From NCBI RefSeq assembly GCF_002900965.1, contig NZ_PJOM01000001.1:248001-312000 (forward strand): a stretch of DNA of 64,000 bases. The letters are read 5' to 3'. The DNA is from Pseudotabrizicola formosa. GTDB lineage: Bacteria > Pseudomonadota > Alphaproteobacteria > Rhodobacterales > Rhodobacteraceae. This document shows, in pieces, positions 1,117 to 18,350 of this stretch. Every line of letters starts with the position of its first letter. The first letter of the stretch is position 1. The notes below the pieces were generated by a model that saw nothing but the letters and a program-made list of their open reading frames with translations, had not been told where the DNA came from and did no database searches. A program made the position numbers and the translations under genes.

Positions 1117-1183
1117 GCCGGCTATGTAGACGCGGCAGTGGGACACCCTTCCCCAACGAAGGGCATTTATCTGTGAGGATACC
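1117..1183 (+). ncRNA. Candidate serC-type structured 5' leader
   Basis: Just upstream of serC there is a perfect 6-bp hairpin: CCCTTC at 1146-1151, loop CCCAAC, GAAGGG at 1158-1163. A weaker GCCG/CGGC pairing precedes it. The serC ribosome binding site (GAGGA, 1175-1179) follows 12 nt after the hairpin. A conserved serC RNA motif is known upstream of the serC-serA operon in alphaproteobacteria, and both the gene order and the position next to the Shine-Dalgarno fit. I matched position and hairpin only, not the full covariance model, and the 5' boundary is a guess. Confidence 0.45.
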
Positions 1184-2341
1184 ATGGCTGATCTGATCGC
1201 CCCGGCATTGCGCCCGGCCAACCCGCGCTTTTCTTCTGGCCCCTGCGCCAAGATCCCCGGTTATTCCCTGTCGATGCTTGAAGACGCGCCCTTGGGCCGC
1301 TCGCATCGTGCGGCTGTGGGCAAATCCAAGCTGAAGGAAGCGATCGACCTGACCCGCGAAGTTCTGGGCGTGCCGGCAGAATATCGCATCGGCATCGTTC
1401 CCGGGTCTGACACCGGTGCTGTGGAAATGGCGATGTGGTCCTTGCTGGGCGCGCGCCCGGTAGAGATGCTGGCGTGGGAAAGCTTTGGCGAAGGCTGGGT
1501 GACCGATGTGGTCAAGCAGCTGAAACTGGACGCGGTGGTGAAGAAAGCCCCATACGGCCAGATCGTGGATTTCTCGACGGTCGATTTCGACAAGGATGTG
1601 GTGTTCACCTGGAACGGTACCACTTCTGGCTGCCGCCTGCCGAATGCCGACGCCATTCCCGCCGCGCGGGCAGGGCTCACCATCTGTGATGCCACCTCTG
1701 CCGCCTTTGCGATGGAGATGGACTGGGCCAAATTGGATGTGGTGACATTCAGCTGGCAGAAAGTCCTGGGCGGAGAGGGGGCGCATGGCGTGCTGATCCT
1801 GTCGCCCCGCGCAGTGGAACGGCTGGAAAGCTATACTCCAGCCTGGCCGCTGCCCAAGATTTTCCGGCTGACCGCCAAGGGCAAGCTGATCGAGGGCATA
1901 TTTGTCGGCGAGACCATCAATACCCCATCAATGCTGGCGGTCGAGGACTATCTGGTTGCGCTGAAATGGGCGAAATCGGTCGGAGGGTTCCGCGGTCTGG
2001 TAGACCGCGCGCGCGCCAATGCTCAGGTGGTCTGGGATTTCTGCGCCGCCAACCCGTGGCTGCAGAATCTGGCGGAAACACCGGAAATTGCATCGACGAC
2101 TTCGGTGTGCCTCAAGTTCTCTGATGCGCGGATTGTGGACGGTGAGGCTTTCGCCAAGGCTGTCGCCAAGCGGCTGGAAAAGGCCGGGGTCGCGTTTGAC
2201 ATCGGCGCCTACCGAGATGCGCCCGCCGGTCTGCGGATCTGGTGCGGATCGACGGTGGAGACCGCCGATGTGCAGGCGCTGATGCCGTGGATCGCCCATG
2301 CGTTTGAGGCCGAGCTTGCCGCGCAGGCGCAGGCCGCCTGA
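1184..2341 (+). CDS. serC: Phosphoserine aminotransferase SerC
   Basis: Converts 3-phosphohydroxypyruvate and glutamate to phosphoserine and 2-oxoglutarate with PLP (385 aa). The N-terminal [13 protein letters not shown] and the PLP-lysine region [17 protein letters not shown], with the Schiff-base Lys in SWQKVLG, are typical of the alphaproteobacterial type, which is longer than and different from the E. coli enzyme. GAGGA lies 5 nt before the ATG. It heads a serC-serA operon behind a hairpin leader. A REP hairpin occupies the 89-nt gap to serA. Confidence 0.95.
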
Positions 2342-17408: not shown

Positions 17409-17437
17409 TTGACAGGCGGGGCGCGGTGCACTACGGC
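17409..17437 (+). promoter_or_regulatory. Candidate sigma-70 promoter of the riboswitch gene
   Basis: A perfect -35 hexamer TTGACA (17409-17414) is followed after 17 nt by a weak -10 (TACGGC, 17432-17437). Transcription would start near 17444, just ahead of the small CCCC/GGGG hairpin and the riboswitch fold. Confidence 0.45.
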
Positions 17438-17461
17438 AGCGCGTCCCCAACCCATCGGGGG

Positions 17462-17493
17462 GCAAGTCTCCGCGACCTTGCATAAAAAACGGA
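17462..17493 (+). ncRNA. Candidate preQ1-I riboswitch
   Basis: P1 is GCAAG (17462-17466) paired with CTTGC (17477-17481). The 10-nt loop TCTCCGCGAC ends in C17476, the position that pairs with preQ1 in known class I structures. The 3' tail is A-rich (ATAAAAAA, 17482-17489). The loop bases TCCG (17469-17472) pair exactly with CGGA (17490-17493) to form the H-type pseudoknot. That CGGA contains the only Shine-Dalgarno-like GGA before the start codon, so ligand-stabilised folding would block translation. The downstream gene encodes a queuosine-precursor transporter, the expected regulon member. Confidence 0.8.
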
Positions 17494-17497
17494 TCAC

Positions 17498-18121
17498 ATG
17501 ATGCAAAAACTTCTGCCTGGCATTGTTGCCATGGCCGCGACTGTCGTGGCCTCTAATATTCTTGTGCAGTTTCTATTCGGCCAGTGGCTGACCTGGGGTG
17601 CATTCACCTATCCGCTGGCCTTTCTGGTGACGGACCTGACCAACCGTCTGTACGGTGCCCAAGCCGCGCGGCGGGTGGTGTTCACCGGCTTTGCCGTCGG
17701 TGTGGCCTGTTCTGTGATCGGCACGCAGATCATGGGTGAATTTGGTCCCTTGGTGACCTGGCGGATCGCGATCGGCTCTGGCGTGGCATTCCTGACCGCG
17801 CAACTGCTGGATGTCGCGGTGTTTGACCGCTTTCGCGGCGGGGTCTGGTGGCGCGCACCTTTGATCTCGACTTTGGTCGGATCATCGGTCGATACGGCGC
17901 TGTTCTTCTCGATTGCGTTTTCTACCACGCTGGCCGGGCTGGAACCTGGCAATGATGTCACTTGGGCCAATGAGGTTCTGCCGCTGCTCGGGCTGGGGCC
18001 TGCTGCCCCGTTGTGGGTGTCGCTGGCTGTCGCGGACTGGGGCGTCAAGCTGTTGCTCGCTTTGGTGGCACTTTTGCCATTCCGCATTATTGTCAGAAAA
18101 TTGACCGCACCGATTGCGTAA
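17498..18121 (+). CDS. Queuosine precursor transporter (YhhQ/VUT family)
   Basis: A 207-aa membrane protein with about six hydrophobic segments. The family features are FTYPLAFLVTDLTNRLYGAQAARRVVF and the C-terminal ADWGVKLLLALVALLPFRII. YhhQ-type proteins import queuosine precursors (preQ0/preQ1) for tRNA modification. Two ATGs are possible (17498, 17501). The second is 7 nt from the GGA that is sequestered in the riboswitch pseudoknot and is the likelier start. The riboswitch supports the preQ-related substrate over other VUT-family solutes. Confidence 0.9.
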   Translation: MMQKLLPGIVAMAATVVASNILVQFLFGQWLTWGAFTYPLAFLVTDLTNRLYGAQAARRVVFTGFAVGVACSVIGTQIMGEFGPLVTWRIAIGSGVAFLTAQLLDVAVFDRFRGGVWWRAPLISTLVGSSVDTALFFSIAFSTTLAGLEPGNDVTWANEVLPLLGLGPAAPLWVSLAVADWGVKLLLALVALLPFRIIVRKLTAPIA

Positions 18122-18150: not shown

Positions 18151-18191
18151 AGGCTCTGCATATCGGCAACCAATTGAAAGGAGGTGATCCA

Positions 18192-18248
18192 GTGTCTAGA
18201 GTGATATTGGAGAGACGTGTCGGGACAGTCATGGGGGGTGTTTTCTAG
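18192..18248 (+). CDS. 18-aa peptide with extreme Shine-Dalgarno
   Basis: GTG-initiated ORF encoding MSRVILERRVGTVMGGVF. The leader GAAAGGAGGTGATCCAG (18176-18192) is complementary to about 17 nt at the 3' end of 16S rRNA, with AGGAGG 7 nt before the GTG: as strong a ribosome binding site as can be built. The stop codon lies inside a small hairpin (CTAGGGG / CCCC-TTAG, 18245-18262). A further imperfect hairpin (about 18277-18302) and a strong terminator at 18318-18350 complete a unit of about 200 nt. I do not recognise the peptide. It could be a microprotein, the coding part of a dual-function small RNA, or a ribosome-capturing leader. Confidence 0.6.
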   Translation: MSRVILERRVGTVMGGVF

Positions 18249-18317
18249 GGGCAACCCCTTAGTCAACCAACCTTTGATTGGGACAGGTTACCTAACTGGC
18301 CCATCTCCTTGAACTCG

Positions 18318-18350
18318 GAAAGGGTCGCCGCACACCGGCGATCCTTTCTC
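18318..18350 (+). terminator. 13-bp intrinsic terminator
   Basis: GAAAGGGTCGCCG (18318-18330) pairs along its whole length, with one G-T pair, with CGGCGATCCTTTC (18336-18348) around a 5-nt CACAC loop. TCTCGTTTCC follows. It ends the short transcript carrying the 18-aa ORF and insulates arfB downstream. Confidence 0.8.

What the first reader, a model, noticed from the sequence alone, without database searches (positions are those of the whole stretch)
17409..17503. preQ1-I riboswitch fold that hides the ribosome binding site of a queuosine-precursor transporter
Sequence: P1 GCAAG/CTTGC, a 10-nt loop with TCCG, an A-rich tail and CGGA form a full H-type pseudoknot in 32 nt. The specificity C (17476) sits directly 5' of the P1 3' strand, as in characterised class I aptamers. 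The only Shine-Dalgarno (GGA, 17491-17493) is part of the pseudoknot, implying translational control. Known biology: preQ1-I aptamers regulate queuosine synthesis and transport genes. The loop is two bases shorter than in the B. subtilis example, and P2 (UCCG/CGGA) is GC-richer than the usual UAG/CUA, so it may be an atypical tight-binding variant.
Basis: partly seen in the sequence, partly recalled or inferred. Interest (0 to 1): 0.8.

Follow-up and report, generated by a model that had tools for sequence, protein, structure and literature searches.

The report
Rhodobacteraceae preQ1 riboswitch before yhhQ
A tiny RNA switch in front of a gene that imports a building block of a modified tRNA base most likely turns the importer off when the cell has enough; close relatives share it, and the standard RNA family library does not report it.

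Summary
Window 17462-17493 holds P1 GCAAG/CUUGC, a 10-nt loop, the tail AUAAAAAA and the pseudoknot strand CGGA, in front of a YhhQ/Vut_1 transporter. The core precedes 99 of 103 distinct yhhQ loci taken from the closest relatives. P1 and the outermost P2 pair show two-sided changes. A model of 37 sequences without the window or its 15 genus genomes finds the window copy at E 3.1e-6; the next match in 64 kb has E 0.09. Rfam PreQ1 (RF00522) gives no hit, but it also misses the E. coli K-12 yhhQ leader, which I identify with a crystallised type III preQ1-I element, so that negative is weak. The genome has tgt, queA and queG, no detectable queF and no convincing queC: it should depend on imported preQ1. 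Best reading: a translational-OFF class I preQ1 riboswitch, type II-like by its 'AC' rule, with the Shine-Dalgarno GGA inside a fully Watson-Crick P2, as in type III. In the genomes sampled, high scores occur only in this family. Ligand binding is untested.

The parts
17409..17437 (+). promoter: -35 TTGACA 17409-17414, 17-nt spacer, -10 TACGGC 17432-17437
   Evidence: TTG-N16-18-TA within 85 nt upstream of P1 in 96 of 98 loci (1 of 99 dropped for too little upstream sequence), 88 with a 17-nt spacer; base shuffles mean 4.8, max 9. Start of transcription near 17443 is inferred.
17444..17461 (+). P0: hairpin UCCCC-AACCCAUC-GGGGG directly before P1, probably at the 5' end of the transcript
   Evidence: a stem of 5 or more bp ending within 2 nt of P1 in 79 of 99 loci; shuffles mean 26, max 36; chimeras of halves from different loci mean 47, max 58. 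Role unknown.
17462..17466 (+). P1 5' strand GCAAG
   Evidence: two-sided changes at three P1 pairs among relatives
17467..17476 (+). aptamer loop UCUCCGCGAC; anti-Shine-Dalgarno UCCG 17469-17472; specificity C 17476
   Evidence: first U, CCG and final C invariant in alignment A1, 65 rows; CCG and the final C were also demanded by the parser
17477..17481 (+). P1 3' strand CUUGC
   Evidence: closing G-C pair in 99 of 99 (L028 corrected)
17482..17489 (+). A-rich L3 tail AUAAAAAA
   Evidence: 4 to 8 nt ending in A in the parsed loci, three As being demanded by the parser (L028 mis-parsed there)
17490..17493 (+). P2 3' strand CGGA, containing the Shine-Dalgarno GGA (17491-17493)
   Evidence: P2 outer pair U-A, C-G or A-U in 89 of 99
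17501..18121 (+). yhhQ, queuosine precursor transporter (Vut_1); in-frame ATG at 17498 is the alternative start
   Evidence: PF02592 and TIGR00697; start inferred from relatives

Best explanation
A class I preQ1 riboswitch that turns off translation of yhhQ. A short transcript starts just upstream with a hairpin (P0), followed at once by the aptamer. When preQ1 is scarce, P2 does not form stably, the GGA is free and YhhQ is made. When preQ1 is plentiful it stacks between P1 and P2 and pairs with C17476; UCCG then pairs with CGGA and buries the Shine-Dalgarno, so import stops. Shown here: the sequence, its conservation, its covariation, the gene context and the pathway context. Inferred: the ligand, the direction of switching and the transcription start. 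By sequence rule it is type II-like ('AC' before the P1 3' strand, 'UC' rather than 'UU' after the P1 5' strand), with type III-like burial of the whole GGA.
For: 99 of 103 distinct yhhQ leaders of close relatives carry the core; the pattern did not demand the P1 5' strand, so its pairing is a finding. A1 (65 of the 99, 61 distinct rows): covariation score 0.083 against a shuffled mean of 0.044, reached by 0 of 500 shuffles; the best slid register has 0.041; 8 two-sided cells in the P2 outer pair, 12 in P1. Held-out model finds the window. R1 matches 214 of 248 sampled family genomes at E<=0.1, 201 of them at E<=0.001 (counted by eye). In the class survey the 5 strongest matches, own included, all precede yhhQ. 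The E. coli K-12 yhhQ leader has the same architecture, and a type III preQ1-I element controlling yhhQ with the Shine-Dalgarno in P2 is published (PMC10622847, abstract and passages read). The own genome has tgt, queA and queG, no detectable queF and no convincing queC. Two of 16 genus genomes have a que operon whose leader looks like a T. tengcongensis-type aptamer; RF00522 places its (non-significant) matches of 20.7 and 20.6 bits on it.
Against: No RF00522 match at E<=10 in 301 bases or in 15 relatives' loci, and none over cut-off in 41 genomes. P1 is short and weak in most relatives: the outer pair forms in only 29 of 99; positions 2-5 open a helix in the minimum-energy fold of the bare aptamer in 28 of 99; mean P1 energy -1.1 kcal/mol in the 93 loci with a P0 (the window's own is -3.0). 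Three of four P2 pairs and the P1 closing pair never vary, partly because the search patterns demanded CCG and CGG, so they say nothing. A register slid by +1 still gives 16 two-sided cells against 20, and 16 of 500 shuffles reach the observed number of pair types. In 7 of 99 the P2 outer position is G against GGC, and in 3 more it is unpaired. Four of 103 loci lack the standard core, and of four more distant family yhhQ loci fetched, three (L153-L155) gave no match to R1. The 103 loci are the closest relatives, not a random sample. No binding data.
Confidence: 0.87

Rival explanations
1. Same fold, but the main cellular ligand is another queuosine-related base (preQ0, queuine or guanine) rather than preQ1.
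For: Type II aptamers tolerate preQ0 (T. tengcongensis: 17-fold difference; PMC11625349, passages read). E. [quoted passage not shown]
Against: The own genome lacks a detectable queF to reduce preQ0 yet keeps tgt and queA, so preQ1 is the useful precursor. The specificity C fits any guanine-like face and does not decide.
Confidence: 0.08
2. A ligand-independent pseudoknot or Shine-Dalgarno-masking element (for example temperature-responsive), or a protein-binding site at the start of translation.
For: P2 alone covers the Shine-Dalgarno. P1 is marginally stable in most relatives.
Against: The invariant U, the final C, the A-rich tail and their spacing match the preQ1-I pocket, which simple masking would not need. 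It sits in front of a queuosine-precursor transporter.
Confidence: 0.04
3. Conserved leader sequence without function as RNA (phylogenetic inertia or a DNA operator).
For: Most of the core is nearly invariant; the changes come from one bacterial family, and shuffles do not remove relatedness.
Against: Two-sided changes in P1 and P2 beyond shuffled and slid controls in the covariation score. The element lies downstream of a conserved promoter, inside the probable transcript.
Confidence: 0.01

Closest known systems
preQ1-I type III riboswitch of E. coli yhhQ (PMC10622847; leader seen in L111)
   Same: Same gene, H-type pseudoknot, A-rich tail, Shine-Dalgarno inside P2, 'AC' before the P1 3' strand.
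   Different: The E. coli loop is UUCCCUCAC with a 'UU' start and a longer linker before the A-tract, and the tail ends AAAAAGG. Here the loop starts 'UC', P2 is UCCG/CGGA and P1 is A-U rich in the middle.
preQ1-I type II riboswitch (T. tengcongensis, B. subtilis)
   Same: Obeys the 'AC' rule (PMC11625349, passages read); loop length of T. tengcongensis (recalled); tail like that of B. subtilis (recalled).
   Different: P2 can form four Watson-Crick pairs in the window, whereas two of four steps are canonical in T. tengcongensis (PMC11625349); P1 has only four pairs in 70 of 99 relatives; a P0 hairpin abuts P1.
Leader of the que operon in G001 and G007 (L159, L160)
   Same: Same genus, same pathway, likely preQ1-I.
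   Different: T. tengcongensis-like loop UCGCAG and tail CAAAACAAGG (resemblance recalled); not matched by model R1.

Membership tests
preQ1 class I riboswitch | H-type pseudoknot: P1 hairpin whose loop pairs with a strand downstream of an A-rich tail | tested here: met
   by sequence and covariation only:
preQ1 class I riboswitch | specificity C directly 5' of the P1 3' strand | tested here: met
   C17476; final loop C in all 65 rows of A1. The parser demanded it, but all four misses were inspected and none is an intact core with another base there.
preQ1 class I riboswitch | match to Rfam RF00522 over the gathering score | tested here: not met
   also not met by the E. coli yhhQ leader, so treated as a limit of the model and not as a defining feature
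preQ1 class I riboswitch | controls queuosine synthesis or transport genes | tested here: met
   position only; regulation itself not tested
preQ1 class I riboswitch | binds preQ1 | not testable with these tools
   needs in-line probing or calorimetry
preQ1-I type II | 'AC' before the P1 3' strand | tested here: met
   window has AC; 96 of 99 loops end AC, 3 end CC
preQ1-I type III | 'UU' after the P1 5' strand | tested here: not met
   window has UC; 88 of 99 loops start UC, 4 start UU
preQ1-I type III | Shine-Dalgarno taken up by P2 | tested here: met
   GGA 17491-17493 inside CGGA; by sequence only
preQ1-I type I | 'UC' before the P1 3' strand | tested here: not met
   window has AC

The most novel reading that the evidence does not exclude
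A distinct, Rhodobacteraceae-specific subtype of preQ1-I, between types II and III: short P1, four-pair GC-rich P2 that buries the Shine-Dalgarno, and a hairpin at the 5' end abutting P1. It would act as a preQ1 sensor in cells that salvage preQ1 because they cannot make it.
Probability: 0.4. Interest if true: 0.55.

Novelty: new variant of a known kind. Interest (0 to 1): 0.45.

Why it matters
It points to a family-wide set of preQ1 riboswitches (201 of 248 sampled family genomes match model R1 at E<=0.001, counted by eye) that the current Rfam model does not report over its cut-off in the 41 genomes tested. It gives a clean test of what such a switch senses in a cell without QueF, and shows that RF00522 misses even the E. 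coli yhhQ leader.

Tried and rejected
Rfam RF00522 as judge: rejected, because it misses the E. coli K-12 yhhQ leader too.

P0 stacking on P1 to stabilise it: not supported. With coaxial stacking turned on, the mean P1 energy was -0.7 kcal/mol next to P0 against -1.1 alone, n = 93 of 99.

P0 3' strand as an alternative partner of the anti-Shine-Dalgarno: dropped, since P0 sequences differ widely (67 distinct stems of 4 or more bp).

Other targets of the element: in the class survey, of 30 loci fetched (L123-L152) only the 5 strongest contain yhhQ; the 25 others, 25.7 bits and below, do not within their stretch and are taken as chance. That survey lists 40 genomes of other families at E<=0.1, so E<=0.1 alone is lenient. 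Downstream genes of the family matches were not checked one by one. Both surveys used Infernal's stricter filters and scored only the top candidates of each genome.

YhhQ leaders outside the family: L157, L158, L162, L163 and L164 gave no match to R1.

Prior description: searches found no report of this element. Of their hits I opened four: PMC10622847 (abstract and passages), PMC11625349, PMC3766115 and PMC9495176 (passages); the rest I saw as listings. The 2014 survey by McCown and co-workers that defined the three types (recalled) is not held and may already include some of these sequences; the passages of PMC3766115 that I saw do not name its proteobacterial lineages with PreQ1.

Parser slips: the regex missed 11-nt loops and was replaced; L028 was mis-parsed and corrected by hand and in alignment A1. 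Seven of the 110 loci were dropped as duplicates.

Full report
OBSERVATION. C17476 lies directly before the P1 3' strand, and GGA (17491-17493) is the only Shine-Dalgarno-like stretch I see between P1 and the ORF. The ORF is Vut_1 and a TIGR00697 queuosine precursor transporter.

CONSERVATION. YhhQ relatives came from whole genomes (the best 30 of 49 places in 48 of 61 genomes) and named genome contigs (the best 80 of 561), so the set is of close relatives. Of the 110 loci, 103 are distinct upstream; 99 of the 103 carry the core. The four misses: L067 has a degenerate version; L078, L090 and L105 have none that I can see. Of four more distant yhhQ loci of the family fetched later, L156 matched model R1 and L153, L154 and L155 did not. 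All 16 genus genomes examined (G000-G015) have the core.

STRUCTURE. In the 99 parsed loci (L028 corrected): the P1 closing pair is G-C in 99; the P1 outer pair forms in 29; the P2 outer pair is U-A in 81, C-G in 7 and A-U in 1; G faces GGC in 7, G-A in 2, U-U in 1. On alignment A1 (65 of the 99, 61 distinct) the covariation score is 0.083 against a shuffled mean of 0.044, 0 of 500 shuffles reach it, and no slid register exceeds 0.041; but the +1 register still has 16 two-sided cells against 20, and 16 of 500 shuffles reach the number of pair types. Shuffles ignore relatedness. Three of four P2 pairs never vary, as expected where the Shine-Dalgarno constrains them and partly because the search patterns demanded them.

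MODEL TESTS. R1 (from A1) matches 214 of 248 sampled family genomes at E<=0.1, 201 at E<=0.001 by my count of the rows; own genome 2.1e-8, which is in the training set. In 385 genomes of the class 45 match at E<=0.1; the 5 strongest (36 to 46 bits) are all in this family and all in front of yhhQ; the best of the other 40 has 25.7 bits and no yhhQ in its 3-kb locus. R2, from 37 sequences without the window and without G001-G015, finds the window at 29.1 bits, E 3.1e-6; the next has 12.8 bits, E 0.09.

RFAM. RF00522 is absent at the site, in 15 relatives' loci and over cut-off in 41 genomes, 12 of which have weak matches at E<=10 but not the own genome. It is also absent from 401 bases around the E. 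coli K-12 yhhQ start, although that leader, UUGGG-UUCCCUCAC-CCCAA-UGGUUAAUCAAAAAGG, fits the crystallised type III element (PMC10622847: abstract and passages read; that the two are the same is inferred from the loop, the GGU linker and the pairing described there). So the negative is weak evidence.

LEADER. A -35/-10 pair with TTG and TA lies upstream of P1 in 96 of 98 loci, spacer 17 in 88; shuffles give 4.8 on average, 9 at most. A hairpin, P0, abuts P1: 79 of 99 have 5 or more pairs, shuffles mean 26 and max 36, chimeras mean 47 and max 58. Energy evaluation does not show that P0 steadies P1; its role is open.

PATHWAY. The own genome (99.99% complete) matches TGT, QueA and QueG and not QueF. 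For QueC it has one partial match, 32 of 210 positions, 21.6 bits (22 with its neighbours, which is the cut-off), where G001 and G007 have 185 and 186 bits over the whole length; I take it as not QueC. QueD and QueE were not searched. In the genus, 3 of 16 have QueF (G001, G007, G010) and 2 of 16 a strong QueC (G001, G007); five of the 16 genomes are only 82-87% complete. All three with QueF also keep the yhhQ element. A cell without QueF should gain nothing from preQ0, so preQ1 is the sensible cargo and signal (inference). In G001 and G007 the que operon (QueC and QueF by family match, the two genes between read by eye as queD and queE in L159) has its own aptamer-like leader, ACCGG-UCGCAGCCUAC-CCGGU-CAAAACAAGG, on which RF00522 scores 20.7 and 20.6 bits, E 1.4 and 1.5, not significant alone.

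CLASSIFICATION. PMC11625349 (passages read) gives 'AC' before the P1 3' strand as the type II rule, and 'UU' after the P1 5' strand plus 'AC' for type III. The window has UC and AC: type II by rule, with type III-like burial of the Shine-Dalgarno and the type III target gene. I file it as a class I preQ1 riboswitch variant; the ligand is not tested. PMC11625349 reports type III as almost exclusively Pseudomonadota, PMC10622847 as almost exclusively gamma-proteobacteria. [quoted passage not shown]

'Loop two bases shorter' is true against B. subtilis (recalled), but 10 nt is the commonest length here (78 of 99) and, from recall, that of T. tengcongensis. 'Tight binding' is untested; P1 is marginal in energy in most relatives, though the window's own is better, -3.0 kcal/mol.

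Noticed in passing
window 18168-18346: A stretch resembling the Caulobacter sRNA CC2171 (RF01867; 35.5 bits, below its cut-off of 75) follows yhhQ; all 15 of 15 loci scanned have such a match on the yhhQ strand downstream of it, 27.6 to 45.7 bits, all below cut-off (L016 is held in the opposite orientation).
   Followed up: partly
window 18180-18248: Inside it, a long Shine-Dalgarno (GGAGGTGATC, complementary to the 16S 3' end as recalled) and a GTG-started 18-codon ORF, VSRVILERRVGTVMGGVF. Of 103 loci, 54 have the exact string GGAGGTGAT and all 54 give an 18-residue peptide; 49 lack the string. Either a tiny protein or a conserved RNA.
   Followed up: partly
L159 1487-1517 and L160 1475-1505: A T. 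tengcongensis-like preQ1-I element in front of the que operon in two genomes of the same genus; Rfam scores it 20.7 and 20.6 bits, below cut-off and not significant alone.
   Followed up: partly
window 1136-1187: serC leader RF00517, 67.1 bits.
   Followed up: no
L021, L023, L027, L071, L079, L092, L108: P2 outer position is G and the tail reads CGGGC in all seven, which suggests a shifted register or a bulged G.
   Followed up: no
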